Shown: positions 1-64,000 of the stretch, piece by piece
How positions within the stretch are numbered: the stretch's first letter is position 1
Layout: each line of letters starts with the position of its first letter
Assembly: GCA_020055645.1 (NCBI GenBank)
Contig: CM034546.1
Location: 96,162,001 to 96,226,000, forward strand
Length of the DNA stretch: 64,000 nucleotides
Origin: Tomocerus qinae
Lineage: Eukaryota; Arthropoda; Collembola; Entomobryomorpha; Tomoceridae
Reading direction: 5' to 3'
The notes under the pieces: model-generated
The model's input: only the letters and a program-made list of their open reading frames with translations
The model's database searches: none
What the model was told of the DNA's origin: nothing
Translations under genes and position numbers: made by a program

Positions 1-203
1 CATAAGCTATTATTTTTACTTTAGGTATGTATGTAAATGCTAACCCTAAATTGGTCTTGCCGATTCGACACACACACAACGATCAAATCTATTTTTATTT
101 TATCTATATGTATTCAAGCATTAATATCTGTAATGAAACCGGTAGATATTACAGAAAAGGTTTATAGTCTATTGTCAAATACGTCAATAATGTTGCTACG
201 TAG

Positions 204-586
204 GTTTTGTCTGCAGACAGCAATACCGAAGTCGGTCGAATTGCTAAACATTGGTCGGGTTTTTTAAAGGAAGCCTATGCAGCTGTGGACAATTTTGGAA
301 TTTCTTTCCCTGTTGATTTGGACGTCAGAAATAAAGCCCTCCTCATTGGTGCATGCTTTCTTATTGTAATTATTTTTACCTTTTATAAATTTCATCAAGA
401 AAGCCATAATAATTGTTATTGAAAATTACTTCATAGACACAGACATAGACATATAAATGTTACATATAATATACCAACTGTTTTGTTTTCTTTTAGGGTT
501 TCATGTATTTTAAGCAGGATCCGTCCCCTGAAACTATCGCTGCAATTAACGACAATGCACAAAGGATAAGGTACCCATTTTTCTGA
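204..586 (+). CDS. Scr1: phospholipid scramblase family, 3' part
   Basis: Last two coding exons of a scramblase whose 5' part lies left of the window: 204-365 and 497-586 (stop 584-586). Acceptor gtag before 204, donor GTAATT at 366, acceptor tttag before 497; both junctions are phase 0. The exon encodes the PLSCR C-terminal signature: VLSADSNTEVGRIAKHWSGF, then VDNFGISFPVDLDVR (the EF-hand-like calcium loop) and a hydrophobic segment ending GACFLI, followed by GFMYF. In the family this is the single membrane-inserting helix and short outer tail. Scramblases move phospholipids between membrane leaflets in response to calcium, and some act in the nucleus. Scr3 is a near-identical paralogue; the first bases of the window match the intron after its exon 4, so the window starts inside that intron. 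The tail ends RIRYPFF. Confidence 0.85.
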
Positions 587-1995
587 CCAAAAAATAGGGA
601 CACTTTCTGAGATGAGGGGCAGAGTGTAGAACTAACGATTATGACAGTATTCGATATTATTTGAGCCTGGTCTTAGTTCGCCTGACGTGACGAGCCCTAT
701 TGCATTGCATTGGTGGTTGACACAATGTGTCCACCGGTTTTCATAATATTTAATTTTTGGGATTACTGTTGGTCTAAAGTTCGCCTTTACCGCAATTGCA
801 TTGCAATTATAGGGATAGGAACAAAGACAAGAAATAACCGGTTATAAGACCAAAATGTATCTATTTCGAATTTTATTTCATTGGGACATTTTTTAAATGA
901 CATTTTTCAATTTCTGTTTATTATGATAGTCAATATGGGCGTAATTTTAATTTATGTTCATTTTAAAAGTCAATATTGCTCTACTTTTAATTTCTGGTCA
1001 TTTTTATAGGGTCTTCCCCTTCTAACTATTCTATCGCTAAAGATGTGTACACGCTGCAGTGCACGGTCACTCACTCAAAATGAGCTTCTGTCTTCTGTTA
1101 CTTGATTGCTCGCTGAGCTTGTGGTTAATGTATTAATAATCTATGGTCTATAACTATTAGCCAAATAAAAAGTCCACATAATAAATTGCTTCAATAATAA
1201 CAACCTACTTATAATGATTAAAAATTCTAACTCTTACAATATTTGTATTTGGAAGTAAAATGTATTTTCTTTAGCATTTCAGCCCTTTAATTGAATACAA
1301 TACAAAGAAGAATGGTTGGGCCAATTCATATTCATAATATTGTAATTTGAATACGAAAATGTCACGAACACTTTTGTCATAATCTCTATATTATAATGAC
1401 TATCTTAGATAAAGCAATAAATTTATCTATCTATCTATGTCTGTACTTATTAGAATCAGAGTACAAACATTTTTTTTGTACATGTGGTAGAGATGAAGGT
1501 AAGCTAAAATGGAAAATGTGCAAGCGCTTATGCAATGCATATTACATAAAACAATAATTAATTACAACTACACTCTGAGTTAATTACCATATTTCAAAAT
1601 TAAACCCAAATTGGCAACGATATATTTTGAAATTTAATAGCTGTACTGGTGGGTTAGTCATAAATACATAATTTATCAGGTACTAAATGTTAGGAATTGT
1701 CTACATGTGGTAAGGCTAAGCTACCCAACTATTGTAGACACCCATAGTGATGATCAGGATACAAACCACTTTTTATTTCTATATAAGGAAAAGAGAAATT
1801 ATAAATTTCTTCACAAAAATAAAGATAGTACTACAATGGTATAAGGGGTAGGGGGCATCTTCATTTAATAAATAATGTAATACATGTTTATGCCCCTCCA
1901 ATCCGTCTGTATAGTCTGATCAAATTTGGTGCAGACACTAGACACAGATCCTACCTAAATATTATTTAGTACCTCTATGGATGTAGATAATATGT
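587..1995. other. Intergenic spacer between convergent Scr1 and Scr2
   Basis: No gene seen. The stretch is AT-rich and is recognisably duplicated at about 13740-16970: shared words include the run around 640-660, which is the empty site for the hAT-like insertion in the other copy, and the block around 1840-1855 ending in gggtagggggcat. It supports a block duplication. Confidence 0.6.
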
Positions 1996-4485
1996 TTAAA
2001 AAGAATGACCAATTCCAAAATGATCACTATGTCCAATTCCAATTCCACTGCTGATTCGATGACGACGACGATGCATAAATGATGATGACGAGCGACGAAG
2101 GCCGCCATTAGCATGATCGTGACTTTGAACATACTCAAAGTATTTGAAGTCCTAAAAATAAAGTACATTCAATGCATGTTTAATGTACCTACAGGCATAA
2201 ACTTTCAGTGAATTACAATTTTATAGTTTGTAGTTCATGCACTTATTATGGTGTTTTCACTTTTCACATTGTAATATTATTATGATCAATGACATGACGT
2301 GTCGCTTACCAGAAGAACACAAGCTCCTACTAACGTCGTTTTAGCAAAAATGTTCAAATCCTTAGGGAAAGAAATTACAAAATTGGTAGCAGCAGTGTGG
2401 TTTTCTTGAACCCAACCTGCATATTGTTTGGTGATTGTCCCCAATTGGGTGCCTTGCAAAGTCATAACCTTACAACGTTCACAACAGAGAAAGAGTGTGA
2501 AACGAGCTTACAAATAAAAATAATCGTAGGCAATTTTCTTAATCGTATTAACAAAATTATGCTATAAAGCAAAGGTACAGTACGGGGAAGCACAAATATA
2601 GCATGCCAAATGCCATGCATATCCGCCATATCTTCTTGGATAGGATATCGTACAAAATGTAAAAATTATAAATCTTTTTACCATTAATATATATGCCATT
2701 TTACCACTGTACTTTATGTTGTTATACCATTATAAGGGTAAAATAAAGCACTGTGTGAGTGTGCAATGTATAAGAGCTAATATTCTACTGATATCCTGAT
2801 CCTTGTACTCCATATCAAAATTAGCTATTGAAAATAACCCGAAAATCACTGCGCGTACGAGATTCGAATCCTTAAAAGAATAAATAAATAATAATAATAA
2901 ATCTAGGGACAAGAAAATACAATAGCACTGCGTGCATCATGACAAAGTCTCTTCTATGAATACTTGTATTGTATTCGTTTGTAAGTATTTTTGGTCCTTG
3001 TTCTCTACAAAATTAGAAAATGGAAAAACATCTTAGATAACGAGCTGACATGATAGTATGTATCAATCAATTGGAACCAACAACTAACTCGTTTGCATAA
3101 AAGCACAAATATCATTAAAAATGGAGACCAAAAATCGGACTCCGGTTCACGTCCGCGTTTCTGTATTATCAGCACTTTCAGTTAGGTATAGGTGGGTAGG
3201 GCTTCAAATAGCTATTTCTTACAGAAAGCAATAAAACTGCTCTTACTTTAAAATCTACAGTTCCACAAGTACAGCAATTTGCTCCCAAACCTTGGATTCT
3301 TAAACCAGGCTGACCAATGGAATCTTTTACAAGAAATTCCGAATCACAGCAAGTCTGAGGATCCACAATTCCTACTATATTTCCAGGAGGGGCACACACC
3401 GTTAAAGCCTGGGTGAAATATTGCACAAAAATTAATCTAAGTAATTCACTTAAAAATGCAGACAATAAAAAACTCATTCGTAGTAATGTGTTGCTAAAGA
3501 CAGTTTTCAAGAACATAAAAACTATTTTGAAAACTGCAATGTTAGACTATCCAAGAATTATAGGTGTACTAATAGTTAGCATACAGTAATTTTTTACCTC
3601 TTCTGAGCAGCCACTATATGGTCGGGTTAAACTCATCACTTGCCTGCTCCATAGATCAAAAATAATTATATTAAAATTTCTTTCAGACCCAAGGTACATC
3701 GTTTGAAGTGGATCAGAGATTTCAGTTGCCCGAAAGATAAGTTCTCCATGTATATTTAATAGGTCATATGTGTTGGGCATGTGTCTTCCAGAAATTACTA
3801 AACCCAATAAATGTAATTACGTAATTTATTATGGAAATTTTTCAGTCATCGATCATTGAGGATATCATAATTATTATACTAATTAAAAATTCTTACTTTC
3901 CACTGGTTCAACTTTTTGTCTTACGAAAACTGTATCAATAAGATTCAGGTACTCCAGACCAGGTGGTATGCCAGGTATTATGTCCCGCATTGGAACTGGA
4001 TTAACTGGCGGTCTTCCCATCCCCATTTGGTATTGTGGGCCACCCATTGGCATCCCCATCCCCATTTGGTATTGTGGGCCACCCATTGGCATCCCCATCC
4101 CCATTTGGTTTTGTGGGCCACCCATTGGCATCCCCATCCCCATTTGGTATTGTGGGCCACCCATTGGCATCCCCATCCCCATTTGGTTTTGTGGGCCACC
4201 CATTGGCATCCCCATCCCCATTTGGTATTGTGGGCCACCCATTGGCATCCCCATCCCCATTTGGTTTTGTGGGCCACCCATTGGCATCCCCATTGGCATT
4301 TGAGATTGAGGTGGCTGTCCATTCATTGGCATTTGAGATTGAGGTGGCTGTCCACTCATTGGCATTTGAGATTGAGGTGGCTGTCCATTCATTGGCATTT
4401 GAGATTCAGGTGGCTGTCCATTCATTGGCATCTGAGATTGAGGTGGTTGACCATTCTTTGCCATTTGGGATGACTCCCCACCCAT
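1996..4485 (-). CDS. Scr2: scramblase with Met/Pro/Gln-rich N-terminus
   Basis: Five exons on the minus strand: 4485-3897, 3797-3598, 3408-3247, 2468-2310, 2151-1996; about 421 residues; phases 1,0,0,0. Start chosen at MGGESSQMAKNG, equivalent to Scr4, Scr7 and Scr8. Residues 1-160 are repeats of GQPPQSQMPMN and of a 13-residue Met/Gly/Pro/Gln unit. Then comes the family signature IPPGLEYLNLIDTVFVRQ, the barrel exons (ISGRHMPNTYDLLN; DLWSRQVMSLTRPYSG; CAPPGNIVGIVDPQTCC) and the C-terminal helix NIFAKTTLVGACVLL. The cysteine cluster typical of palmitoylated PLSCRs is reduced to one Cys in YSGCSEE. The calcium-loop acidic positions are mostly replaced (AATNFVISFPKDLN). The last exon encodes a basic, Ser/Arg/His-rich tail ending HSF. 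The acceptor of exon 4 is the weak tgtaag. A BEL/Pao element sits about 430 bp upstream. Confidence 0.85.
4017..4290 (-). repeat. 39-bp coding minisatellite in Scr2 exon 1
   Basis: Seven head-to-tail copies of a 39-bp unit encode a 13-residue Met/Gly/Pro repeat centred on GGPQYQMGMG. Successive units alternate PQYQ and PQNQ over most of the array, giving a 78-bp higher-order unit. The array is in frame, so copy-number changes keep the reading frame. An adjacent 33-bp array (4300-4460) encodes GQPPQSQMPMN. Scr4 keeps one 39-bp unit and Scr6 about one and a half. Confidence 0.9.
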
Positions 4486-4910: not shown

Positions 4911-5297
4911 TGTTGTTTTTAAGGTACAAATTCAAACTCTAGGAACTGGGAGGTACACTGACAATAATGCTGGGTCAAATAAATGTGACAATGACGAAAA
5001 AGTGAAATACATTCACACAAATCAGTCACACTATTTATTCAATTCAATTCTCTGCTTCTTTCAGCAGACAAAATATGAGTAACGACCCAGAGCACGTTCG
5101 GACAAGTAATGAATATTCTAGAGAAAAAGACGCTCTTGGATCGACACTAAATTATTAACGGCTAATGCTTACTTACTATTGGTTCAATCTCAAATCAATT
5201 AGCCTATTACAAATAAAGTAGCTTAAATTAAACTAGGTGGCACTTAATACCCTAAACTACTTTGTAAACTGTTTACTACTTACTAGCAGTTCTAACA
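4911..5297 (-). repeat. 3' LTR of the BEL/Pao element (element sense)
   Basis: 387 bp, starts tgttgtttttaagg and ends cagttctaaca on the plus strand. A short purine run (GGTGGGAG in element sense, 5301-5308), three bases inside the LTR, is the likely polypurine tract that primes plus-strand synthesis. Confidence 0.93.
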
Positions 5298-5525
5298 TTA
5301 CTCCCACCATTAAGTTCGTCAAACAATTCAGAACTTAATCAAATTAACTTAGGAATAAATTGCATTTAAATAAACACGCGTAAGCGCTTACCAGACATGT
5401 CATATCAATTCAATCACACAAAAGACATACTAAGGTAAACTACAATTAAAATGGAAACTTTACTAACACGTAAAAGCGTTTACCAAACATGAAAAATTCA
5501 ATTATAAATAAAGGTAAATGGTAAA

Positions 5526-7439
5526 CTAAATATCAAGTCGATTTGGCGTCTTCACTTTTCGGCCAAAACGTGTAGTAACTTCCGGTTTATCTTTGATGAG
5601 TTCCTTCCGTTGATTATCTGTCACCTCCAACGGATACACACGTTGAACTGGTCTCGTCACTTCACCGCTGGCAGTCTTGAGACGTACGACACGAACGACT
5701 CCATCATGGCCGGGATATACCTCCATGACTTTCGCCAACTTCCAGTCCAACCGCTTGTGGTTGTCGTCCCCAATGAGTACAATTTCTCCAGGACGAATTG
5801 ACTCGTAATTCTTCTTTGCATTTCCGGGCCCCACAAGCATGCCCAAATATTCCACTCGGAAACGCTTACGTAGGTCATCTCTGATCTTCTGCTGTCGAAG
5901 TGCTCTTCTGTTTAACCCTTTCCCATCCAGAACATCTATGTCAGCGACTCCAGCTTCCTTGACTTCTTGTAAAAACATTGATGGGGTCAAAGGAACCAGA
6001 TCTTCTACATCTTCGGAGACATAAGTCAAAGGACGATGATTGAGGACACACTCCGCATCACACAAGACAGTTAATAATTCTTCATATGTTAGGGATGCTT
6101 TCCCCAACACTCTTCGGAGGATTCTTTTCACGGATTGTATCAGCCGCTCCCACCAGCCTCCCCACCAAGCTCCTGTCGGGGGTATGAATTTCCACTGTAT
6201 CTTCTTGAGAGCAGCTACTTCCTTTACTAGTTTCCAGTCCAATCCTCGAAACAAATTGACGGCTCCAACAAAATTCGTACCATTATCACTGTATACAGTG
6301 GTAAGCCGTCCTCTTCTGGATACGAATCTTCTAAATGCCTGTAGAAAAGCTTCAGTGGATAATGATGTCACCAGCTCCAAGTGTACAGCTCTATAAACTG
6401 CACAGGTGAACAGCACTATCCAAGTCTTTTCTCCTCCTTTCAGTTGCAGTGGTCCTGCTAAGTCGACACCGGTAATCTCGAACACGGCCGCATCACGAAC
6501 TCTGTCCATTGGGAGTGAGGCGGGAGTCGTTTCTATGTGTTGAGCATCATATCTTCGGCATCTAAAACAAGTTTTAATAACTTCTCGGATCGTCTTCTTC
6601 GCACTAAGGATCCAGAATTTCTCACGAAGTCTGCATTGCACCGTTTGAACTCCTGCATGGCTCATCTCTCTATGCTTGCTTTCAATCATGAGTTTCACCA
6701 ACGGATGCTGAGGAGGTAGGGCGATAGGATTCTTAAAAGTCTGGAAATCATCCCTCAACTGTAATTTGGTTTTGACTTTATAATATCCATCTTCATCTTT
6801 AAATAACGTCACTCCTCTCTTCACTTCCTTTTCCTTAGTGAAAGTTTCTTGTTGAATAGAGTAGACCAATGACATCTCGGCTCCTTCTATTTCATTTACA
6901 TCCAACTGGCCCATCTTTCTGTCAATGGCTTTCTTCTTACAGTTGGAGTAGAACCGACGGATGTAGGCTACGATTTTCAGAATACCCTCATAGGTATTAT
7001 TTCTCAATGGGCTTGACAAAAGTCTTTCAGTAAAATAATCTTGAGCCGGAATACCAAGATGGGCTGCCACGACAGTCTTCCTCTTCTCTGAGTTCACTAT
7101 TTCATCATCCGGCGCAAACTTACTTTTGGGCCACATATTTTCTGGGTTCTTCAGCCAGGTAGGTCCCTCCCACCATGCAGACTCAATCAATTGCTTTGGG
7201 GTACATCCCCTCGAAGGCAGGTCAGCAGGGTTCAGGATTCCAGAAATATGTTCCCAATTATTATAATCACTCAGCTTACGGATTTCTTTCACTCGGTTTG
7301 CTACGAAGACTGCCCACTGTTCGTCCTTCCTAATCCAAGATAAGGCGTTCGACGAATCTGTCCAATATCGTGTAGGCATGTCCAAACGATTTAAAATCTT
7401 CTTCACAGAATATGCTAACCGAGCTCCTATGCAGCTCAA
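5526..7439 (-). CDS. BEL/Pao pol 3' part: RNase H end, integrase, C-terminal domain
   Basis: 637 codons open, with no ATG at the 5' edge (the frame opens with a TTG), so it must be made as a fusion with the upstream frame. It begins in RNase H (RYWTDSSNALSWIRK carries a catalytic Asp). Then comes an integrase zinc-binding H2C2 region (HREMSHAGVQTVQCRLREKF, then CFRCRR), and the integrase core with the D-D-E triad: TGVDLAGPL, VYSDNGTNF and the Glu in GGWWERLIQSVKR. The final 150 residues resemble the DUF5641 domain common in BEL/Pao. It overlaps the upstream frame by 110 bases in a different frame. The overlap starts right after the conserved PRLEL motif. Confidence 0.9.
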   Translation of the reverse strand: MSCIGARLAYSVKKILNRLDMPTRYWTDSSNALSWIRKDEQWAVFVANRVKEIRKLSDYNNWEHISGILNPADLPSRGCTPKQLIESAWWEGPTWLKNPENMWPKSKFAPDDEIVNSEKRKTVVAAHLGIPAQDYFTERLLSSPLRNNTYEGILKIVAYIRRFYSNCKKKAIDRKMGQLDVNEIEGAEMSLVYSIQQETFTKEKEVKRGVTLFKDEDGYYKVKTKLQLRDDFQTFKNPIALPPQHPLVKLMIESKHREMSHAGVQTVQCRLREKFWILSAKKTIREVIKTCFRCRRYDAQHIETTPASLPMDRVRDAAVFEITGVDLAGPLQLKGGEKTWIVLFTCAVYRAVHLELVTSLSTEAFLQAFRRFVSRRGRLTTVYSDNGTNFVGAVNLFRGLDWKLVKEVAALKKIQWKFIPPTGAWWGGWWERLIQSVKRILRRVLGKASLTYEELLTVLCDAECVLNHRPLTYVSEDVEDLVPLTPSMFLQEVKEAGVADIDVLDGKGLNRRALRQQKIRDDLRKRFRVEYLGMLVGPGNAKKNYESIRPGEIVLIGDDNHKRLDWKLAKVMEVYPGHDGVVRVVRLKTASGEVTRPVQRVYPLEVTDNQRKELIKDKPEVTTRFGRKVKTPNRLDI

Positions 7440-10400
7440 GACGGGGAATAGAAACTACTTTCACCGGGGCCACTCTCGCTTTCGCCAATATCAGTTGGAC
7501 TGTGACTCCCTGCTCTGTTTCTCCTCGCATATAAACACAAGCTGCATATGCATCCTTGCTGGCGTCTACAAACACATGTAGGCTTTTCTTCTCTTCATCA
7601 CAATAGGAATTGAAAAGCCATCTCGGGATTTTCACCTTTTCCAATAAAGGCAGTGTCCGTTTCCAATTTTCAAATTTCTTTGAAATATTTTCAGGCAGCT
7701 CGTCATCCCATCCTACTTTTAGACTCCAGGCCTCTTGAAGTAACTTCTTCGGAAACAATGTAACCGGACAAGAAAAGCCAATCGGATCAAAAATACCATG
7801 AGCTGCTGATAAGATTTTCCTCTTAGTCACTGGAAAATCCACTTCTGGAGAAAGTCCTCTGGTGTCGCAAGTCAAGCAATCTTCTTCCAAGTTCCACGTC
7901 AGTCCTAGCACTGGAAAAGACTTCCTATCCTTTTCTTGACTTGATATCCAACCACGGAGATCGAATTTTGCTGTCGACATTATTTCCGTAGATTCTCGCT
8001 GGAACACATCGACTTCCTCTTGACTACCAAGACTAGTCACGCAGTTGTCCACATAGAATGAGGACTTCAATCTTTTTGCTGTCTCCTGCAAATGAGTCGG
8101 AGCTCTGTCCAAATGCAAATTAATTGTTGCTCCCAACAAAAAGGGACTCGAGGAGACACCAAATACAACTCGGCGGTGGCGGTACTCCTTCATAACATCG
8201 TTGCAATTTTTCTCCCACCACAGAAATCGAAGATAATTTCGATCTTCTGGACGCACACTTATCTGGAGAAAAGCTTTTTTAATGTCCGCCATAACGCCAA
8301 TTTTTTCTAGTCGAAATCTGGTCATTACATCGGGAATAATTTCTAATAAGTTTGGACCTTTCTCCAAACAATCATTCAGTGAGGGAGAGAACTTTTCCTT
8401 TGCTGAAGCGTCGAACACTGGGCGGACAGGGGTCGTCTCACTATTAACTTTGAGGACAGCACGGTGGGGGAGATAATGACCAAAAGAACTCACTTCCTCC
8501 GCCGGAACTTTCTCTATGACTCCTTCCTCCTCCCAGGTGTCAATAATCTTCTGATATGCTTCAGTCAATCCTTCTGCTCTAATTTTCTTAGTAGCTGACA
8601 CCAATCGTTTTTCTGCTAAAAACTTGTTACTCTTCAATTCACCATGAGAAGATATCCAGGGGAGAGCAACTTCATAACGACCCTCGGAATCTGTTTTAAT
8701 AGTCTTCAGAAAATTATCCATGGCGGCTTGCTGTAATTCTTCGCGAGTCTGACTTTCTGCAGGGTCGGTAATACCGATGGTATCGAGTTTCCACAAATCT
8801 TGGATCTCAGCATCTTTTACGAACATCGAAGTCACTAAGAGGGTACTGTCTCCATTCGAATTTCCCGGAGCTTTTCCACATAAAGTCCACCCTAAGTGAG
8901 TTTCGACAGCTGAAGGTCCAACGTCGAAATCATATTTCCTGCCTGTTTCCAGTTTTTTACAGACGTCAACACCAATGAGAAGTTGGATTTCAGGACAATC
9001 TTTCCCAAAATCTGAAATTGGAATTCCCAACTTCTTCACTTCCTGCATCCACGGTCCACTCTTCACTCTAGGCAAGTCGCCACAAATCTGAGCTTCATCT
9101 AACACTGCAAAAGTACAGGTGTATTTTCTGTCCATGCTACTAACTCGGATCTGATACTTTTTATGCAGACGGGTCTTGGACACAGAACCACCAAAGAGAT
9201 TATGCTTTACTCTTTCTTCTCCTTGAACTGGGTAGCCAATAGCTTCTGCTGCATCCTCTCGGATATAAGACCGCTGCGATCCAGAGTCTAATACTGCACG
9301 GACTAAAATTTCTTTCCCCTTGTGGAGAAGTCTCACCATTAATGTCTGCATCAACACCTCAGGAGAACAAGTTTGATTGGCCAAGTTGGTGTCACTCTTC
9401 TCTTCTTTATTACAACAGGTAGTGTCCTCCTTGGAAATTTTCGTTCCTTTATGAGTAGGTAGGTCGGGACACATCACAGTAAAATGACTGAGAGGGCACA
9501 CAAGACACTTGGGCTTCGGTTTGCACGGCTTAGGAAAATGTTTCTTCAAACAACTATAACACTTTTTCTTTTCCTTCAAAATTGCCTTCTTTTCATTCAA
9601 ACTCATCCCTTGGGCTGCAAAACAATCTTGACTGGCGTGAGATTTTCCACAAAAGGCGCAACAATTTTCATTCCACCCTTTTCCTTTTTTCTGATTGGAG
9701 TCACCACTAAATAAGCCTGCAGCGGTAGGAACCTCGGTACAAATATTTTCAGTTTTGACTTTCGCTTTCTTGCCCTTCTCTTCTTTTTCAATTCCAAATC
9801 CTTGTCGGGCCATAGATATGCGTTCTTCTCCCTCAACTTCATTCCGTAAAAATGACATCAAAATTGTCAGCTGATTGGGATTGGAACTAACACTAGCACT
9901 GGTCAACTGAATCCGACTTCTTTCCCACGCACGCATGACCTCTTCTGGCAAACAGGACTCCACCAAAGGGTATAACATTGCTGCATATTTGTCACTTGTG
10001 ACATTTAAACTTTCCAATGCCCTCAGGTAAGTTTCTAATTTGTCGTATAAACTAGAAAGTACAATTTTCACCTTACAATTTTGGGCGTTCTGGAGTACTA
10101 ACCGTAAAAGCTCTCGAACATAAACTTCTACTAAAATATCTTCACGTCCAAATCTGTTCTTCAGGCTCTCTATAGCTTTCGGATAGCAAGACGCACTCGG
10201 AGGGAAGCTTTCCACTAAATCCCCTGCTCTTGATCCTTTTTCAACTGCCTGCATCAGATATTGGAACTTATCTGCATTGTCGATATTCTGATCGTCGTCA
10301 ATCTTTTGAAATTGGCCCCAGAATCCAAGCCAATCCTTAGGGTCGCCGGAAAACTTCATCCATTCCAATTTGGGCAGTTTGAATTTTCTCTTCGAATTTG

Positions 10401-10761
10401 GCGATCCAACATGACTCACTGAGCTTCCAGCATCTACTTCTTCAGTTGACTTACTTTCATCTAATAGGATATTTTCCATCAGAATACGGCATCTGTCCAT
10501 CCGGTCTCTATCTTCTTCCGCTCTGTTGAATTCTGTCTCGTATGCATCCACATCTAGATCTTGACTGCATTTCATCGCGCCGAGAATTGTATTGTTCAAT
10601 CCGTCCAATGTAACAAAACGCCTTCCCATCTGAGCAAATTTGGCTTTCACATCCAAAATGATGCATTCTTCTCTGGACAGCTCATCCTGTAGGGTTAGGG
10701 CTAACGCAGTGAACTTCGACCTCACAAGGTCACGATCCAATCTCGTACGTTCCACAGCCAT
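7330..10761 (-). CDS. BEL/Pao gag-protease-RT-RNase H polyprotein
   Basis: ATG at 10761 (MAVERTRLDRDLV); about 1143 residues to the stop at 7330. A gag-like DUF1759 region covers roughly residues 1-350 (LPKLEWMKFSGDPKDW is its hallmark). Cysteine-rich zinc knuckles follow near 365-415 (CCAFCGKSHASQDC, CYSCLKKHF). An aspartic protease with the AVLDSGSQRSYI active site lies near 495. Reverse transcriptase runs about 750-950, with RPVFDAS, the catalytic ADIKKAF, and FYVDNCV for the YxDD-like box. RNase H starts near 1080 (HVFVDASKDAYAA). After PRLEL the sequence loses similarity (HRSSVSIF), and the true continuation lies in another frame from about 7430. This is most simply a small indel in a recently active copy. 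Confidence 0.93.
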   Translation of the reverse strand: MAVERTRLDRDLVRSKFTALALTLQDELSREECIILDVKAKFAQMGRRFVTLDGLNNTILGAMKCSQDLDVDAYETEFNRAEEDRDRMDRCRILMENILLDESKSTEEVDAGSSVSHVGSPNSKRKFKLPKLEWMKFSGDPKDWLGFWGQFQKIDDDQNIDNADKFQYLMQAVEKGSRAGDLVESFPPSASCYPKAIESLKNRFGREDILVEVYVRELLRLVLQNAQNCKVKIVLSSLYDKLETYLRALESLNVTSDKYAAMLYPLVESCLPEEVMRAWERSRIQLTSASVSSNPNQLTILMSFLRNEVEGEERISMARQGFGIEKEEKGKKAKVKTENICTEVPTAAGLFSGDSNQKKGKGWNENCCAFCGKSHASQDCFAAQGMSLNEKKAILKEKKKCYSCLKKHFPKPCKPKPKCLVCPLSHFTVMCPDLPTHKGTKISKEDTTCCNKEEKSDTNLANQTCSPEVLMQTLMVRLLHKGKEILVRAVLDSGSQRSYIREDAAEAIGYPVQGEERVKHNLFGGSVSKTRLHKKYQIRVSSMDRKYTCTFAVLDEAQICGDLPRVKSGPWMQEVKKLGIPISDFGKDCPEIQLLIGVDVCKKLETGRKYDFDVGPSAVETHLGWTLCGKAPGNSNGDSTLLVTSMFVKDAEIQDLWKLDTIGITDPAESQTREELQQAAMDNFLKTIKTDSEGRYEVALPWISSHGELKSNKFLAEKRLVSATKKIRAEGLTEAYQKIIDTWEEEGVIEKVPAEEVSSFGHYLPHRAVLKVNSETTPVRPVFDASAKEKFSPSLNDCLEKGPNLLEIIPDVMTRFRLEKIGVMADIKKAFLQISVRPEDRNYLRFLWWEKNCNDVMKEYRHRRVVFGVSSSPFLLGATINLHLDRAPTHLQETAKRLKSSFYVDNCVTSLGSQEEVDVFQRESTEIMSTAKFDLRGWISSQEKDRKSFPVLGLTWNLEEDCLTCDTRGLSPEVDFPVTKRKILSAAHGIFDPIGFSCPVTLFPKKLLQEAWSLKVGWDDELPENISKKFENWKRTLPLLEKVKIPRWLFNSYCDEEKKSLHVFVDASKDAYAACVYMRGETEQGVTVQLILAKARVAPVKVVSIPRLELHRSSVSIFCEEDFKSFGHAYTILDRFVERLILD

Positions 10762-10903
10762 TGTCAATCGCAAACAAACAGAACCAACTCAAATTAACGA
10801 ACGGAAGTTGACACACGATGGCACAAAGACACAACTGTTACTGTTCAATAAAGTAACGATCACTTGTCTATTACTGACTAGTCAAATGTCCTTACCCCAG
10901 ATT

Positions 10904-10920
10904 CCTAACCAGGGGCGCCA
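10904..10920 (-). promoter_or_regulatory. Primer binding site of the BEL/Pao element
   Basis: Minus-strand TGGCGCCCCTGGTTAGG, starting three bases inside the 5' LTR. The leading TGG pairs with the universal CCA end of a tRNA; which tRNA cannot be decided here. Confidence 0.75.
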
Positions 10921-10923
10921 GAA

Positions 10924-11312
10924 TGTTGTTTTTAAGGTACAAATTCAAACTCTAGGAACTGGGAGGTACACTGACAATAATGCTGGGTCAAATAAATGTG
11001 ACAATGACGAAAAAGTGAAATACATTCACACAAATCAGTCACACTATTTATTCAATTTAATTCTCTGCTTCTTTCAGCACAGACAAAATATGAGTAACGA
11101 CCCAGAGCACGTTCGGACAAGTAATGAATATTCTAGAGAAAAAGACGCTCTTGGATCGACACTAAATTATTAACGGCTAATGCTTACTTACTATTGGTTC
11201 AATCTCAAATCAATTAGCCTATTACAAATAAAGTAGCTTAAATTAAACTAGGTGGCACTTAATACCCTAAACTACTTTGTAAACTGTTTACTACTTACTA
11301 GCAGTTCTAACA
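10924..11312 (-). repeat. 5' LTR of the BEL/Pao element (element sense)
   Basis: 389 bp, almost identical to 4911-5297. Differences seen: a C/T change at the ttcaat(t/c)aattc site and an extra CA in cagcacagac. It would hold the element's promoter. The leader between it and the gag ATG (10762-10923) shows no ORF of note. Confidence 0.93.
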
Positions 11313-11602: not shown

Positions 11603-13646
11603 ATGGCAGAACAGGCTTTGGATAATCAGCCAAAATCAAACAGTATATAATCTTACTGTTTCTTACTCTTGATTATAAATATTTAAACCTAATTTATAAT
11701 GAGAATGAGAATTTCTAACATTTATACATGATCTACGTTTTAGTTAATCAGCCTCTACCTCCGATTCCAAATCCAACTCAGGTTCAAGCCATACCTTTGG
11801 ATGTTCCACAGGGTTTAGAGCGTCTGACAACAATCGATATTGTGTTTGTCAAACAAAGGGTTGAAATTTTGGAGGGTAAATCATCAGTTTATCCACATAA
11901 TATTATAATAATGTTTTGTCATCTAAGATATTTGAGTAAAAGTATGGTCACTGGTAGTCAGGAGTCTGAGTACTTTTTGCTCCACCGTGCTCTTTTTTCC
12001 CCTCAAATTTCATTTAGCATAAGTTGGTACACGGAAGTACTACCATGTACTACCATTATATAGTATGCTTTTGTGCCAATTTATTCTGAAAAGAAGGGGT
12101 GGGATTTTAAACAAAAATACCTCGTAATTAGTTAGTAACTAAGGTAATTTTCAAAATATTTGACTCCGACTCTTGATTCTCTTATTACGAAGTGATAAGA
12201 ATAGAATACAGGAAATCTTGATTAGGTCACTGGTCAGTTTATGCTCAGCCAACCCCAGATCATGATTCTTGATATGGTTTACTGTCACTTCATACTGTAC
12301 ATACTGTGTTAAAATAAGAACGATTCACATTTTCACATTCACAAGCAGATTGATGAGTAAAGAATTTCGGAAGATAATTCAAATGAAAAACTTCTCTTTT
12401 TCCAATACAAAATTCTGTTCAGAATACGTATAATTACATCAAGGAGGGGATGGGAAAATATTCTTACTTATGATTTATCACATGTACTTTTCTGTTTTAT
12501 TTTGCTAACACAGTGGCTCTTGGCTGCGAGATTAATAACATGTATGATGTAGTAAACAGTATAGGAGAATTTCTTTTCGAAGCAAAAGAAACTACGACGT
12601 GTTGTGCAATGAAATGCTGCAGTCCAAAAAGACCTTTTAATATTGAAATAAAAGATATGTATGGAGAGCAGATTATTCACTTCGACCGACCTCGGGCTTG
12701 TGGCTTCGTTTGTTTCCCGTGCTGTCTCCAGGTATTTGATTATATGCACCGAATTAAACTGTCTTCTGCTTCCTGTTCGATAATAAACTGATTTCAATTT
12801 ATTTATGTTGAAATTGGTTTATATATACTTCATTTTTAGACTTTGAATGTATCAGCACCTCCCGGACGAGTTTTAGGAAGCGTTCAGCAAAATTGGAGTT
12901 GCTTTCCTTCTTATGTGGTAAGGGATCAAGCGGGAAAAGTCCTCTTTCGTATTAAAGGCCCATTTGTTCATTCTTCGTGTCTCAAAAATGTGGCTTTTAA
13001 GGTACCTACCATAAGCTACTATTTTTACTTTAGGTGTATGTAAATGCTAACCCTAATTGGTCTTGGCGATTCGACGTATACACCAAGTTATGATCCAAAC
13101 TATTTTTATTCTATCTCTGTATTCAAGCATTAATATCTGTATTGAAATCGGCAGATAATCTAGAAAAGGTTTAGTCTATTGTCAAATGCGTCTTTGTCTC
13201 CGTAGGTTTTGTCTGCAGACAGCAATACCGAAGTTGGTCGAATTGCTAAACATTGGTCGGGTTTTTTAAGGGAAACCTATGCAGGTGTAGACAATTTTGG
13301 AATTTCTTTCCCTGTTGATTTGGACGTCAGAAACAAAGCCCTTCTCATCGGGGCATGCTTTCTTATTGTAATTTTTTTTACGGTTTTTAAACATTTAATG
13401 AACACACATTTCGTTAACAAAACCATAATAACTGTTATTGAAATATATAATATATATACTTGTGTTGTTTTCTTCTAGGGTTTCATGTATTTTGAGCAGG
13501 ATCCGTCCCCTGAAACTATCGCTGCAATTAACGACACTTCACATAGAATAAGGTACTCAGTTTCTGATGAGGGGGAGTGTGTAGAACTAACAAGGTCGCA
13601 GCGAGAGGGGGGGCACGTGCCCCCCCCCCGAAATCGAGAAAAATAA
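11603..13646 (+). CDS. Scr3: canonical-like phospholipid scramblase
   Basis: Six exons: 11603-11642, 11744-11875, 12514-12731, 12840-13001, 13206-13367, 13479-13646; about 293 residues; phases 1,1,0,0,0. Short N-terminus MAEQALDNQPKSN. Then PLPPIPNPTQVQ (Pro-rich), VPQGLERLTTIDIVFVKQ (PLSCR PPGLEYL motif, slightly altered) and barrel repeats, including MKCCSPKRPFNIEI and the cysteine cluster CGFVCFPCCLQ. In PLSCR1 that cluster is palmitoylated and directs the protein to the plasma membrane. Next SAPPGRVLGSVQQNW, the calcium loop VDNFGISFPVDLD and the helix KALLIGACFLI. This and Scr1 look closest to the ancestral gene. The predicted tail past residue 270 reads into a hAT-like element (13591-13739) before the stop. 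Alternatively a donor at AAG/GTACTC (13552) leads to an unseen exon. Confidence 0.88.
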
Positions 13647-14212: not shown

Positions 14213-14224
14213 GTCTACCCTTAA

Positions 14225-14646: not shown

Positions 14647-14650
14647 TTAA

Positions 14651-23734: not shown

Positions 23735-24052
23735 CTTCATATCGGCTTTTATTTCTCCCGGAGGATGAGTCCGATTTTTATGGGACCTACATTTTTGGAA
23801 CCGTGAACTATCCAGGAACAAAAGTTGCCATTCGGAATTTCGATATAGTTGTTTTAAATGCATTTAAAAAAATCAAATTCTCAAAAAATTTAGTCATTTT
23901 TAGTTTTTTATAAAACGTTGAAGTTTTTGGTCGATTCAAAGCAACTATATCAAAATTCCGAATGGCAACTTTTGCTCCTGGATAGTTCAAGGTTCCAAAA
24001 ATGTAGGTCCCATAAAAATCGGACTGATCCTCCGGGAGAAATAGAAGCCGAT
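23735..24052. mobile_element. Palindromic MITE
   Basis: Arms of about 125 bp: left contains tttatttctcccggaggatg and tgccattcggaattt; the right arm is its inverse (cctccgggagaaatagaagc, aaattccgaatggcaac). The centre is A/T-rich (23850-23935). ORFs on both strands are reflections of each other. Confidence 0.75.
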
Positions 24053-43513: not shown

Positions 43514-43515
43514 TA

Positions 43516-55229: not shown

Positions 55230-56409
55230 ATGGTCTGCATCTCTAATGTAGCCAAGGCACAGATTTCCAACTTAGCTACGAATCTTAAACAAGTGCCAGC
55301 AGGAGCTAGCAGTACTCATTAATATTCAAAGATCTTAAGCATTCCACGAATTAGGAAACATTGACATGGGATTACTAATAAATATTTCATTTTTTTGCAA
55401 CTTCCAGGATTAAGTCACAACTGTGATATTCGTTCTGTTAGAAGCGCTAGACCAATTAGTCGGTTTTCGTTGACTACAACCAGCCCTAATGACGATTTTG
55501 ACAAACAAATATTGCGATTAGCGGAAGTTGATGAGTTGTACATTGTACAGAAAGAAGTGGAAAACGTTGGTATGCCTAAGATAATAAATTTATAGATATT
55601 TTTGCTCTTTTCCAGACATTTATTTTCACCTTTCTAATTTTATGACTCTTCTTGAAGGCTCACTTCTTGAAGGGATGTCACAGTATGGCTACGACATCAA
55701 GGATGGCAAAGGTGAAGTCCTTTACACAGCCAGCCATATCCACGGGCCACATGACCCTTTCTTCGAATTAAAAATCTATGGATCTGACGGACAACCGATA
55801 CTAAAAAAGCGACTATACCAAACAGTCCCAGCTGGCATGTTGGTAAGTTTTCATTAAATGGTGCATCCGGAAAAAAGTGATTAGACCAAAGTTACTCCTC
55901 TTTTACAGCATATGCAAGTTCATAGTATGAAAGGAAAGAGTCCTCTCGTTGGGATCGTGCAAGAAAGAAATGTCGACAACGGAGGAAAGAAATTCTTTGA
56001 ATTAAGAACTCCTGATAATGAAATTACTTGCATCGTTAGCAGCCACATTACTGGAAGAATGATGTCTCGACATCACAAAGTAGGCATTTTATTACTCTGT
56101 TGACAAAACTGTAATTAGTTGATATCTCCATGTTTTCTCGAACATTTTGCCTTCACAGATATTATCATCTGACGGTCATAGAGAAGTCGGGAAAATATTC
56201 AAAAGATGGAATGCGCTGTTCTCAGGTGACAATCTCAAGATTGCTATTGATGTCCCTCGACATCTGAAGCCATCTGAAAAGGCTTTGTTAATTGGAGTGC
56301 CTATACTTTTGGTAATGCTATAATAAAAGTAGCATTATCGTTAATGAATAGGACACTTTTGACCATTTTTAATTATTTTTGAACATAGGGACAGAGATAC
56401 ACCAAATAA
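55230..56409 (+). CDS. Scr9: highly divergent scramblase
   Basis: Six exons: 55230-55311, 55408-55569, 55658-55842, 55909-56079, 56159-56311, 56389-56409; 257 residues; phases 1,1,0,0,0, exactly the Scr3/Scr5 pattern. Little sequence identity remains. LAEVDELYIVQKEVE replaces the PPGLEYL..VDQ helix. Barrel strands are YGYDIKDGKGEVLYTAS and FELKIYGSDGQPILKK, then MKGKSPLVGIVQER. The C-terminal exon HREVGKIFKRWNALFSGDN aligns with VGKISKHW of PLSCRs; the calcium loop is gone; helix EKALLIGVPILL. The tail is only GQRYTK. No cysteine cluster. The exon 3 acceptor is uncertain: gaag/GC at 55658 is preferred, gaag/GG 15 bases later is possible. Confidence 0.78.
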
Positions 56410-57202: not shown

Positions 57203-58591
57203 ATGTCTACTTTGAGAAGAATTGTGGCTGGGATGAACAAACGTTACTTAAGTCCCTATTGTAATCTTTTTCATGGTAATAATTATAGCTTTTTGGTATA
57301 CGAGAAAAACACATGCATTTTATCGCTCATTTATGAATTAATTTCATTAAACTTGTTGCAGTTCAGCCAACAGTGCGTAGAACTCCAAGTATCGTCAGGT
57401 TTTCTTCAAATTCTGAAGAAATTCTTCCTGCACAATTTAACGTTTTAAAAGATGTAGGTATAATGTTTATAGAACAGAAAAAGTCAACTAATTTAGGTAA
57501 AATATTGACAATACTTAACTAAATTTGCATTATGATCAATAGAGCAGTACTTAAGTAATTGTACTTTTCATATTAAGGGTCTGGCTTCGGGAGATTAGTG
57601 GACTACAATGTCCAAACTAAAGACGGAACGGTTTTATTTGTCCTAGAGCATTTCTATGGAAGATCATCTCCTTATTTTTATGTCAAAATAAAGAAAAGTA
57701 TTCAGGAGCAGAAGCCCTTGATACATATGGCTCTGATAAGAGATACACACAACAACGTTAATGTAAAATTATCTAAAAATCTCTAAACCTAAATTTCAAA
57801 AAATCTGTCAGCACTAAATAGTACTTACTCTGCCATTATGTATGAAACTTTCAACGACCATAGAATTTTTATCTTCACGAAAAAACGGAATTGCTGCTGT
57901 AAATATTAGGAATATTTTTATTATTATGTTGATATTGACGGAGGTGTAAAATACTATATAGTGACTGTCTTTGCATATTTGTTGATATCCCAAATTTGTA
58001 TCAATTAGGGCATGACATATTTTGTTCATCCAAGCACAATAATTGGCACTCTGGAACCAACTCATGGAGACTTAACATTGGGAGGAAATGCATACGCGTT
58101 GAAATGTGCTTCAGGAGATATTAAAGCTAGATTATTTTCCAATGGAGCCTATGGTGAAGCAACTAAAATCAGAGTAAGTTCAACATTCATTAATTATAAG
58201 TGAAAATAAAATTTCCTCGAAAGAATTTATCTAATACTAACTGATTTGTAATAAAATGCTAGCTACTGACACCAGAAGTGAAGATAATCGGAAAACTCTC
58301 AAAAATAAAGCAACTAATGATAAGGTCATGGTTAGATGCTGAGCTTCATTTTCCTGTCGATCTCGAAATTATTGTCAAAGTAAAACTGATTGGAGCAGCT
58401 ATCTATTTAGTAAGTTTCATTTGTGCCCATCTTTGGGGAATACTATTATGCTTACTGCAAATGAAAGTTCATTCCTGTACTCATTATCTATATTTATCGT
58501 ATCTGATGATGCATGACGATTAAATGCATTTTTACTTTTGCTGATTCTTTAACTACTTAATTAGATGGGTCCAGGTCCACTTATGGAGTAA
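57203..58591 (+). CDS. Scr10: highly divergent scramblase
   Basis: Six exons: 57203-57275, 57362-57496, 57578-57762, 58009-58173, 58263-58409, 58565-58591; 243 residues; phases 1,1,0,0,0. MSTLRRIVAGMNKRY starts it. Exon 2 has LKDVGIMFIEQKKS in place of IDTVFVKQ. Exon 3 has GRLVDYNVQTKDGTVLFVLE, recognisable as the Y(D/N)V...G.LF motif. Exon 4 carries HPSTIIGTLEPTHG in place of APPGNIVGIV. Exon 5 has VKIIGKLSKIKQLMIRSWLD, ELHFPVDLEIIVKVKLIGAA; the FPVDL of the calcium loop survives, but the upstream acidic positions are changed. Tail MGPGPLME. Similar in size to Scr9 and probably its tandem relative. Confidence 0.78.
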
Positions 58592-60721: not shown

Positions 60722-63147
60722 TCTATATAATAATAGCCGGAGAAATGTTCTTTAACATCAACTTACGACTTTCAAATTTTTACTGCATGGGCACATCATA
60801 GTCAGAACCCCAAATTTCGAGTTTCAAAACGATATCTTTCATAGAAATCGTTTTATGATTTTTTGAATTTCGAATTTTAACATTGAAGGAGTGGGAGAAA
60901 ACGCTCCGATCTGTCACGCTGTGTTCAAATACTCCTCCTACAGTTTTCATCCGATCTTTACCAAACTTTTTCCTGACCTTCTCGACTTACTAATAAAGAC
61001 GGTAGCCGCTCCAGTTTTTTTATTTTTTAGTAGAAAATATTTTGCCAGTGAATTTCAAAAATTTCATAAAGTCCTACTCTTTAAGCAGGCAGGCCTCCGC
61101 CATGTAAAGAGATTAGTGTCCCTTTCACTTCGAACGGGGCGACCGCAGCGGAGTCAAACTATTAATAGCAAGGCAAGGTTTATTTAGTCAGTATTATTTG
61201 GTTGTGGGTTGTATAGGTTGACTTGACTTGACATAGGATTGGTTCATAATTGTAGCGGGGTAGGTAGAAAATAGATAGAAACAACGAGGACGATTAAAAT
61301 AGTGGTAGCTAATTAAAATAATAGAGCTACTTAAAATGAAGAGGTAAAAATGACGTGAATATTTAAAATGACAGGAATATTTAAAATAAAGAAATTATTT
61401 AAAATGACAGGAATGTTTAAAATGGCGAGAATTTTTAAAATGACGAAATTTTTTAAAATGACGTTTATAGATTTAAAACAACGGGGTTATTCAAAATGAA
61501 AGGATGATTCTAAACGACAAAATTATTTAAAACTACGGGGTTATTTAAATGACACCTATTTAAAATGTGGGGTCATTTACAATGACACTTATTTAAAATA
61601 TGGGGTAATTTGCCATTACGTCTATTTAAAATGATGTCTATTTAAAATGATGTCTATTTAAAATGACGTCTATTTAAAATGACGTCTATTTAAAATGATG
61701 TCTATTTAAAATGACGTCTATTTAAAATGACGTCTATTTAAAATGATGTCTATTTAAAATGACGTCTATTTAAAATGACGTCTATTTAAAATGACGGGGT
61801 CATTTAAAAGACGTCTATTTAAAATGACGTCTATTTAAAATGACGCGGTCATTTAAATGACGTCTATTTAAATGACGTCTATTTAAAATGACGGGGTCAT
61901 TTAAATGACGTCTATTTAAAATGACGGGGTCATTTAAATGACGTCTATTTAAAATGACGTCTATTTAAAATGACGGGGTCATTTAAATGACGTCTATTTA
62001 AAATGACGGGGTCATTTACAATGACGTCTATTTAAAATAAATGACGGGGTCATTTACAATGACGTCTGTTTAAAATAAATGGCGGGGTCATTTACAATGA
62101 CGTCTATTTAAAATAAATGGCGGGGTCATTTACAATGACGTCTATTTAAAATAAATGGCGGGGTCATTTACAATAACGTCTATTTAAAATAAATGGCGGG
62201 GTCATTTACAATGACGTCTATTTAAAATAAATGGCGGGGTCATTTACAATGACGTCCATTTAAAATGACGGGGTCATTTAAATGACGTCTATTTAAAATG
62301 ACGGGGTCATTTAAATGACGTCTATTTAAAATGACGTCTATTTACAATGACGTCTATTTAAAATAAATGACGGGGTCATTTACAATGACGTCTGTTTAAA
62401 ATAAATGGCGGGGTCATTTACAATGACGTCTATTTAAAATAAATGGCGGGGTCATTTACAATGACGTCTATTTAAAATAAATGGCGGGGTCATTTACAAT
62501 GACGTCTATTTAAAATAAATGGCGGGGTCATTTACAATGACGTCTATTTAAAATAAATGGCGGGGTCATTTACAATGACGTCTATTTAAAATAAATGGCG
62601 GGTCATTTACAATGGCGTCTATTTAAAATAAATGGCGGGGTCATTTACAATGACGTCCATTTAAAATGACGGGGTCATTTAAATGACGTCTATTTAAAAT
62701 GACGGGGTTATTTGCAATGACGTCTATTTACAATGATGGGGTTATGTAAAATGACGTATATTTACAATGATGTGGTAATGTAAAATGACGCGGGGTGATG
62801 TAAATTGACGGGGGGATTTAAAATTATATATTATGTCCATGTAATATTAATGATATAATAAAAATCAGGCGCTGATGAAAGGACTTCAGACATTTATTTA
62901 CTTTAATTTCGCTGTTTAGTTAAATGATGTTAAATTTGGTTCACTATTATTATGTTGATTCGATAAGTATTGTATTTTTTCCCCGTCCGTAGGATGTTAT
63001 AGCAATGCAGCAAGCAATGTTTTAAACATTTTAATCTGTTAATTTTCATACTTTTTTAATGCATAATGCATCCTCATGATCTCTGATCTACCGTCCCCAT
63101 TAAGAGGTTACCCATTTTTCCCGTTCGGAGAACGGGCCTATTTCTAG
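60722..63147 (+). mobile_element. Helentron/HINE-like element, copy 2
   Basis: Starts tctatataataatagcc immediately after the end of copy 1. The head (60740-61250) is about 90% similar to copy 1; the minisatellite is larger (61310-62820); tail and hairpin (cccgttcggagaacggg) end at tttctag. The satellite shows higher-order blocks, such as runs of tgacgtctatttaaaa alternating with aaataaatggcggggtcatt. The short ORF common to both heads (about 59222 and 60891) has no known motif and is not called a gene. Confidence 0.72.
61310..62820. repeat. Expanded HINE minisatellite
   Basis: Roughly 1.5 kb of 15-45 bp units built from atttaaaatgacgtct and atttacaatgacggggtc. Units around 62030-62260 recur almost exactly at 62360-62690, a duplicated block of about 250-330 bp. 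CpG-containing acgtc/gacgt cores occur in nearly every unit. Confidence 0.9.
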
Positions 63148-63555
63148 TAATCTAATAATTAATTTACATGCATTAGATCACATACTGCTTTGTATTATCC
63201 CTATTAATTGCGTGCTTAAACAACTTTAAGCTATGTCGATGAAACCATTTGTGCCACACTTAATAAGACAGTAAGTTAAACAGTGCAAATTACTATTGGT
63301 GTACAATACCATTCGTGATAAGGAGCAACAAATGCATTACTTATTAATGATACACGTCAGAAGAGACAGGAGTTTCCACTCCTATGTTTTATGTTTATTG
63401 TGCTACTGAATTGTGGAAGGATACATATCCGATATAATGTCATATTGTAGTGTACTACCAACTTTGCCTTTGAAATCATGACTTTTCATTAGTAAAATGC
63501 AACACCTGATGAGAGACAACTATTACCATTAGCTGCTTTGCAGATTTACGAAATA
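63148..63555. other. 5' flank of Scr11
   Basis: No other gene seen in about 400 bp. Confidence 0.5.
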
Positions 63556-64000
63556 ATGAGTGAGAAACATCGACAGCCTGTTGCTAAAATTAACCGCATC
63601 ACGTCAGTCAACCTCACGTCTTCATTTACTCCGACAGGTTTTTCAAATTCCTTTAATCATATCTAAAATGATACAATTATTGTTTTGTACAATCATGACA
63701 TATTTTCTCATTGGTAATGCAATACCAACAGATACCACCGTTAGTAGTGGAACCATTTTTGATGTACTACTTAAAATGGATAAAATATTGGTCAAACAAA
63801 GCCACACGGGTAGGATTTGAAACAAACTTTGAAGAAACTATTTACCTAATGTGAACCACTTAATTGCAACTGTAATGTGTATATTTTCTTTGTGTTCATA
63901 TTATCTAGCTGATTTGGCCAGAAAGAGGAGCCGATACGATATTTACGATCAAAATGGATTTCCTTTACTAAGGGGTTTCCAGCGCTCGAGGAGACTTTGC
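63556..64000 (+). CDS. Scr11: divergent scramblase, 5' part
   Basis: Exons 63556-63637, 63732-63809 and 63909 to beyond the window; phases 1,1. Exon 1 MSEKHRQPVAKINRI has the same length (82 bp) and phase as Scr9 exon 1. Exon 2 contains TIFDVLLKMDKILVKQS, the counterpart of GLEYLNLIDTVFVKQ. Exon 3 has LARKRSRYDIYDQNGFPLLR, matching the YD(V/I)..(N/S).G..LF strand. A competing reading starts at ATG 63668 and runs unspliced into exon 2 with a signal-like MIQLLFCTIMTYFLIG. I prefer the spliced form, because phase and exon length match the other genes. Confidence 0.65.

What the first reader, a model, noticed from the sequence alone, without database searches (positions are those of the whole stretch)
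1..64000. Tandem cluster of at least eleven scramblase genes in several structural classes
Seen: eleven gene models with the same core intron positions and phases, on both strands. Known: most animals have a handful of PLSCR genes. Inference: a lineage-specific expansion with functional splitting, open at both window ends.
Basis: partly seen in the sequence, partly recalled or inferred. Interest (0 to 1): 0.85.

Follow-up and report, generated by a model that had tools for sequence, protein, structure and literature searches.

The report
Eleven-gene scramblase cluster, mostly non-canonical
A stretch of an arthropod-like animal chromosome carries eleven neighbouring copies of a membrane-lipid (scramblase) gene, most of which lack sequence features tied to calcium and fatty-acid control in known relatives, so part of the family may have been reused for something else.

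Summary
Eleven phospholipid-scramblase-family (PLSCR) gene models, A-K, lie in the window, nine on + and two on -; the edges cut A and K. All 42 introns inside the window are GT-AG, and core phases are 1,0,0,0 wherever testable. Pfam PF03803 matches B-I; J and K fail Pfam but pass leave-out profile tests, K only when completed from neighbouring DNA. A has a frameshift left of the window, so it is probably a pseudogene.

The family runs past both edges; the unnamed 334 Mb genome holds about 31 scramblase-like loci, against 2 in fly, 3 in an ant, 5 in human and 8 in nematodes (PMC12458967, passages).

0 of 11 window genes keep all three calcium-loop Asp tested; 8 of 18 other loci examined do. 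B, D, F, G and H form one clade (97/100) that also lacks the palmitoylation cysteine cluster and was not found elsewhere. Exons are constrained.

Best reading: a local radiation of scramblase-fold proteins loosened from calcium and palmitate control. Expression, activity and lineage-specificity are untested.

The parts
204..586 (+). Gene A, last two exons (e4 204-365, e5 497-586); the rest lies left of the window and carries a frameshift, probable pseudogene
1996..4485 (-). Gene B, 5 exons (3897-4485, 3598-3797, 3247-3408, 2310-2468, 1996-2151); Cys-loop-less class, 173-aa Met/Gly/Pro/Gln repeat tail
   Evidence: (PF03803 3.8e-45)
4911..11312 (-). BEL/Pao-type retroelement (not a scramblase part) between B and C; flanking direct repeats 4911-5297 and 10924-11312, 99.2% identical, taken as its LTRs
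11603..13646 (+). Gene C, 6 exons; keeps 4 Cys in the loop (CFPCC), lacks the first calcium-loop Asp
   Evidence: (2.3e-63)
16969..19465 (-). Gene D, 5 exons; recent duplicate of B
   Evidence: (3.6e-46)
25392..27143 (+). Gene E, 6 exons; intermediate class (CCCLG loop, STDNYDVSFPMD)
   Evidence: (8e-48)
36138..38237 (+). Gene F, 5 exons; Cys-loop-less class, His-rich C-terminal tail
   Evidence: (1e-50)
39775..41888 (+). Gene G, 5 exons; Cys-loop-less class, 33-bp repeats in e1
   Evidence: (1.5e-45)
44142..46622 (+). Gene H, 5 exons; Cys-loop-less class, His-rich C-terminal tail
   Evidence: (2.4e-47)
55408..56409 (+). Gene I, 5 exons found (first exon unknown); hyperdivergent
   Evidence: 4.5e-6
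57203..58591 (+). Gene J, 6 exons; hyperdivergent, no Pfam match
   Evidence: 6e-9, leave-out profile
63556..64000 (+). Gene K, first two exons and part of the third; continues to window-frame 64674; hyperdivergent
   Evidence: 1.8e-7, leave-out profile, complete K

Best explanation
The window is the core of a large radiation of PLSCR-fold genes in an arthropod-like animal. SHOWN: about 31 loci in the genome; eleven here with one shared exon plan; a copy with all three tested calcium-loop Asp (Z) 2-3 kb to the left; B, D, F, G and H form one clade, not found outside the window; that clade has 0-1 Cys where the palmitoylation cluster should be, has lost one (H) or two (B, D, F, G) of the three Asp, and carries long Met/Gly/Pro/Gln repeat tails; I, J and K have lost the Cys cluster and the first two Asp but keep reading frames and intron phases; coding sequence of the recent copies is constrained. 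INFERRED: the proteins keep the scramblase fold with its C-terminal hydrophobic stretch but are loosened from calcium switching and palmitate anchoring. The most likely job of the B/D/F/G/H class is as partners or modulators that act by protein contact or joint oligomers with canonical scramblases such as Z, not as calcium-triggered lipid scramblers. The hyperdivergent genes have probably been recruited to another role.
For: Gene models and phases; Pfam; leave-out profiles for J and K; genome-wide loci; clade B/D/F/G/H 97/100; motif table, 0 of 11 window genes against 8 of 18 other loci with Asp at all three positions (2 of the 31 loci were not in the table); the hits of an F query at 60% identity or more all lie in this window (whose counts are lower bounds); dN/dS 0.30-0.48 for the 10 pairs among B, D, F, G, H; B/D exons e2-e4 92.5-98.0% identical without indels against introns at 78.7-87.5% with 24 indel events. 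Literature: palmitoylation and the calcium loop are both needed for Drosophila Scramb1 to build slit diaphragms though not for colocalisation, and Scramb1 can oligomerise (PMC11335299: abstract, passages, section 9).
Against: No transcript, localisation or activity data. In Scramb1 the single mutants D372A and F374A still rescued; F378A rescued partly and only D372A+F378A failed, so loss of one or two Asp does not prove loss of calcium control; the loop's two Phe and last Asp are kept in B, D, F, G and H. Motif loss is not confined to the window: 10 of the 18 other loci also lack Asp at all three positions. Cysteines elsewhere in these proteins could be acylated. The tails have 1-4 PxxP and no PPxY motifs, so the usual proline-motif scaffolding is little supported. 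B/D exons e1 and e5 are only 86.3 and 84.6% identical, about as low as the introns. In the tree K and L fall with the C4/C5 loci and I and J do not, so I-L need not be one class. The partner step is conjecture.
Confidence: 0.5

Rival explanations
1. Ordinary dosage or subfunctional expansion: all copies are still working scramblases, split by tissue or stage, and the motif changes are tolerated drift.
For: Purifying selection; single loop mutations D372A and F374A still rescued in Drosophila; hydrophobic C-terminal stretch kept in the complete models (by eye).
Against: In one clade the Cys cluster and acidic loop residues are both gone, while 8 of 18 other loci of the same genome keep Asp at all three positions; I, J and K are 20-31% identical to the other window genes where compared (I and J).
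Confidence: 0.25
2. Immune radiation: the array is a birth-and-death family of antiviral or antimicrobial effectors, as vertebrate PLSCR1 is interferon-induced and a sand fly scramblase is secreted after dsRNA.
For: Array with recent duplicates, a probable pseudogene (A) and long divergent branches; sand fly LL5 cells secreted over 8-fold more scramblase 24 h after dsRNA (PMC5795456, passages).
Against: The same paper also reports scramblase among molecules reduced in mRNA and secreted protein after transfection. Recent pairs show dN/dS of 0.30-0.48, no sign of positive selection over the core (single sites were not tested). No induction data here.
Confidence: 0.15
3. Much of the array is dead: divergent copies are decaying pseudogenes.
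For: A has a frameshift relative to C; no transcripts available.
Against: B-J read open through all exons with GT-AG junctions and shared phases even where synonymous change is saturated; B/D exons e2-e4 have no indels while their introns have 24 events.
Confidence: 0.07
4. Assembly artefact: uncollapsed alleles counted as paralogues.
For: A/C and B/D are near copies in a segmental duplication.
Against: dS of 0.13-0.16 for the closest pairs and 0.37-0.68 for the other nine pairs of the B/D/F/G/H class; different intron lengths.
Confidence: 0.03

Closest known systems
Phospholipid scramblase family (PF03803): human PLSCR1-5, Drosophila Scramb1/2, nematode SCRM proteins
   Same: PF03803 match for B-I, low-complexity N-terminus, C-terminal hydrophobic stretch followed in B, D, F, G, H by DF.(Y/H)FE as in human DFMFFE (recalled)
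   Different: Copy number (about 31 loci here); no window gene keeps Asp at all three tested calcium-loop positions; B, D, F, G, H, I, J and K have 0-1 Cys in the loop; repeat tails with few PxxP and no PPxY; 6-7 His in the C-tails of B, F and H
Nematode scramblase set (8 genes, per passages of PMC12458967)
   Same: An invertebrate with more scramblases than fly (2) or ant (3)
   Different: Fewer copies; whether they form an array or lose the motifs was not examined here
Plant LURP-one-related (LOR) family (36 genes in soybean, from the abstract start of PMC8624885 in the listing)
   Same: Related fold family (recalled) that expands to dozens of copies
   Different: Plants; another subfamily, not compared here

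Membership tests
Scramblase family by homology (PF03803) | Match to the Pfam Scramblase model above its cut-off | tested here: met
   Met for B-I, 8 of 10 proteins scanned; J and the window part of K no match at E<=1; A not scanned
Scramblase family by homology (PF03803) | J and K: homology by a profile that excludes them | tested here: met
   J 6e-9, 0 of 1000 shuffles; complete K 1.8e-7, 0 of 1000; window part of K alone weak, 22, 47 and 1 of 1000
Scramblase family by homology (PF03803) | C-terminal hydrophobic helix | tested here: inconclusive
   A hydrophobic stretch is seen by eye in the complete models; no helix or topology prediction was run
Scramblase family by homology (PF03803) | Tubby-like barrel fold (recalled) | not tested
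   No structure job was sent, as the tool's stated input rule seems to exclude spliced proteins; a profile of alignment A1 matched no scramblase chain in the PDB, only two OspA chains at 0.015 and 0.31
Canonical calcium-activated, palmitoylated scramblase (PLSCR1 type) | Palmitoylation cysteine cluster (CCCPCC in PLSCR1) | tested here: not met
   Not met for 8 of 11: B, D, F, G have 1 Cys, H, I, J, K have 0; A and C keep 4, E 3
Canonical calcium-activated, palmitoylated scramblase (PLSCR1 type) | Asp at the positions of human 273, 275 and 284 in the calcium loop | tested here: not met
   0 of 11 window genes keep all three; A, C, E, H lose the first; B, D, F, G the first two; I, J, K the first two (J keeps the last) (human letters and numbering recalled)
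Canonical calcium-activated, palmitoylated scramblase (PLSCR1 type) | Calcium-triggered lipid scrambling | not testable with these tools
   Needs an assay

The most novel reading that the evidence does not exclude
The genome has turned the scramblase fold into a large, fast-diversifying family whose majority no longer answers to calcium or palmitate: a general protein- or lipid-binding barrel used for immune or partner-recognition roles, with the window as the place where the uncoupled B/D/F/G/H class arose.
Probability: 0.2. Interest if true: 0.7.

Novelty: new variant of a known kind. Interest (0 to 1): 0.45.

Why it matters
Whether PLSCR proteins are true lipid scramblases or calcium-regulated adaptors has long been argued (recalled). 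A natural series in one genome, from a copy with the tested motifs (Z) through partly stripped copies (A, C, E) to largely stripped ones (B, D, F, G, H, then I, J, K), would let each feature be tied to activity, localisation and phenotype without designed mutants. About 31 loci would also exceed the counts for fly, ant, nematode and mammal given in the one paper I saw on this (PMC12458967, passages).

Tried and rejected
A signal peptide for K (hydrophobic run after an in-frame ATG at 63668) was dropped: a phase-1 e0|e1 intron as in C, E and J explains the exon better, and the complete gene then fits the family. A Cys-rich ORF at 29179-29466 and weak motifs at 29.9-30.7 kb were considered as a further scramblase and rejected. 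Weak profile hits at window-frame 159.7-160.2 kb (0.024-0.29) were not followed. A mealybug was guessed from the contig sizes; a search for the biotin synthase BATS domain, expected there (recalled), found nothing, so no taxon is claimed. Paper searches that showed me no report of an arthropod scramblase expansion: 0 papers each; 98 papers, 40 listed; 46, 30 listed; 11 listed; 4 listed. Of listed papers I saw titles and abstract starts; six were opened, for passages and one whole section. The two stick-insect papers held nothing on an expansion. In the tree, groups other than B/D/F/G/H are unresolved, the copies I call canonical are not a clade, and the bootstrap had not settled.
Full report
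WHAT WAS CLAIMED AND WHAT IS THERE. An all-against-all comparison of open frames inside the window, with no outside query, gave one component of nine frames (exon e4) and two of seven (e2, e3) that are recognisable PLSCR exons. Profiles built from these found e1, e2 and e3 in seven genes and e4 in the same nine, with a tenth e4 (gene J), which the model had not seen, next at 0.0023. Reading the DNA gave the other exons of I and J and an eleventh gene, K, at the right edge. Explicit models are: nine genes on + and two (B, D) on -. All 42 introns inside the window are GT-AG. Junction phases are 1,0,0,0 at the four core positions in B-J (9 of 9; for I the frame is fixed by its exons because its first exon was not found). 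A further phase-1 intron near the start is seen in C, E, J and K; B, D, F, G and H were modelled from an ATG in the exon that holds the repeat tail, and an earlier non-coding exon is not excluded. I chose splice sites at homologous places, so the independent point is that GT and AG are there, in frame, each time.

FAMILY MEMBERSHIP. PF03803 matches B (3.8e-45), C (2.3e-63), D (3.6e-46), E (8e-48), F (1e-50), G (1.5e-45), H (2.4e-47) and I (4.5e-6, 26.6 bits against a cut-off of 25.4); J and the window part of K have no match at E<=1; A was not scanned. Against a profile of B-I plus the recalled human row, J scores 6e-9 and 0 of 1000 shuffles reach it; against B-H, 7.2e-7, again 0 of 1000. The window part of K scores 0.011 (22 of 1000), 0.021 (47 of 1000) and 9.3e-4 (1 of 1000) with the B-I, B-H and B-J profiles: weak. 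With DNA from the right, K has six exons, all junctions GT-AG, and a complete protein that scores 1.8e-7 against B-I and 1e-5 against B-H, 0 of 1000 each; its phases, counted from the exon lengths, are 1,1,0,0,0.

SURROUNDINGS AND GENOME. The window is C1:96162001-96226000 of a 334 Mb assembly in 115 contigs; PF03803 finds 47 exon-level matches there at E<=0.001. Left of the window lie Z and the rest of A; right of it L, then M and N about 170 kb on. The count: Z and A-N (15); C1:93.07M and C1:98.09M; three on C4:11.5M; nine on C5; one single-exon place at C2:41.94M; and C1:95.79M, found with J as query. That makes 31 loci, one of them probably dead (A). It may be too low, since I, J, K and L were not among the matches, and some loci outside the window, which were not modelled in full, may be broken. 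PMC12458967 (a preprint, passages) gives 8 for nematodes, 5 for human and mouse, 2 for Drosophila and 3 for the ant C. floridanus. TTAGG runs give 400 (partly overlapping) matches against 0 for the reversed pattern, and chitin-binding domains lie in the window; this suits an arthropod, but no taxon is established.

CLASSES. A tree of 29 genome rows and one recalled human row puts B, D, F, G and H on one side of a branch with 97/100 support. Two halves of the tree are split with 90/99: one with the C4 and C5 loci (but C5:5.016M), C1:98.09M, K and L, the other with the remaining C1 genes, C5:5.016M and human. K, L, I and J are long branches whose places are unsure, the copies I call canonical are not a clade, and the bootstrap had not settled. 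The motif table shows Asp at the positions of human 273, 275 and 284 in 8 of 29 genome rows (Z, M, N, C1:93.07M, three on C4, C5:5.016M) and in 0 of the 11 window genes: A, C, E and H lose the first; B, D, F and G the first two; I, J and K the first two (J keeps the last). L and 9 loci elsewhere also lack one or more, so the loss is not unique to the window; two of the 31 loci were not in the table. The cysteine loop has 4 Cys in A and C, 3 in E, 1 in B, D, F and G, and 0 in H, I, J and K; counts for rows that I trimmed (Z, M, N) are minimal. Hits of an F query at 60% identity or more all lie within this window, counts there being lower bounds. Tails differ: 61 to 173 residues rich in Met, Gly, Pro and Gln in B, D, F, G and H, with 1-4 PxxP and no PPxY; C-tails with 6-7 His in B, F and H.

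SELECTION AND AGE. NG86 estimates: A/C dS 0.16, dN/dS 0.33 (83 codons); B/D dS 0.13, dN/dS 0.30; the other nine pairs among B, D, F, G and H have dS 0.37-0.68 and dN/dS 0.32-0.48; all other pairs tested have dS of 1.66 or more, or none that can be computed. B/D exons e2, e3 and e4 are 98.0, 97.5 and 92.5% identical without indels, e1 and e5 only 86.3 and 84.6% with 1 and 2 indel events; the four introns are 78.7-87.5% identical with 24 indel events. G/H exons e2-e4 (68.5-76.7%) and F/G (75.5-80.5%) also exceed their introns (45.9-62.2% and 44.2-59.6%). Window 1-4.5 kb matches 13.0-19.5 kb in pieces, so A+B and C+D are a duplicated pair, now separated by a BEL/Pao element whose flanking repeats are 99.2% identical. 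A carries a one-base frameshift relative to C in its first core exon, outside the window: a probable pseudogene, or an assembly error.

HOW IT MOST LIKELY WORKS. Published work describes PLSCR1 as a tail-anchored type II protein with a proline-rich N-terminus holding PXXP and PPXY motifs, a cysteine-rich region and an EF-hand-like calcium loop, and says that palmitoylation at CCCPCC controls nuclear location (PMC9158361, passages). In Drosophila, Scramb1 needs its palmitoylation sites and its calcium loop to build slit diaphragms, though not to colocalise with their components; its proline-rich region probably mediates contact with Pyd/ZO-1; D372A and F374A alone still rescued, F378A partly, and D372A+F378A failed (PMC11335299, abstract, passages, section 9). 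From this I infer that the B/D/F/G/H proteins are uncoupled from palmitate, probably less calcium-dependent, and act by contact or joint oligomers. The loss of motifs is shown; the consequence is inferred; the partner is conjecture. Rivals are weighed in their sections.

VERDICT. A real, well-built gene cluster of a known family, unusually large and with an unusual class that lacks two regulatory features. It is of moderate interest: surprising in size and in the coordinated motif loss, unproven in function.

Noticed in passing
window 4911-11312: BEL/Pao-type retroelement on the - strand with flanking repeats 99.2% identical, ending about 290 bp before the start codon of gene C; a recent insertion that may affect C's promoter.
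   Followed up: partly
window 48134-52028: Frames with chitin-binding peritrophin-A domains (PF01607: 1.1e-12, 2.1e-16, and one at 0.019 under its cut-off) followed by a mucin-like tandem repeat of 39 bp, about 39.5 copies (50516-52006); probably one peritrophic-matrix or cuticle gene, not modelled. The repeat frame also nears the Lysostaphin_N cut-off (59.2 of 60 bits), likely through composition.
   Followed up: partly
window 32512-33339: Open frame matching DUF7869 (3.5e-11), possibly part of a mobile element together with frames at 31.5-32.4 kb (two of those scanned, no Pfam match).
   Followed up: partly
window 29179-29466: Cysteine- and proline-rich open frame of 96 aa with no Pfam match at E<=0.05.
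   Followed up: partly
window 59629-62824: Satellite-like blocks built on an ATTTAAAATGACG motif, with a duplicated unit of about 1.1 kb (59053-60145 and 60722-61877, 82% identical).
   Followed up: no
window 14221-14650, 23741-24052, 35388-35718: Three long imperfect palindromes (310-430 bp, 80-85% self-complementary), possibly foldback elements.
   Followed up: no
window 39166-40299 and 43569-44603: G and H share about 1.1 kb covering upstream DNA and the first exon (75% identical), so the duplication may have carried the promoter region along.
   Followed up: no
L022-L024, L026-L033: Scramblase loci of the C4/C5 type and C1:98.09M have e3 and e4 in one open frame, so they differ in intron plan from the window genes.
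   Followed up: partly
window-frame 70.4-70.6 kb (L003): Gene L, right of the window, has e4 and the end of the protein in one exon (no e4|e5 intron), unlike A-K.
   Followed up: no
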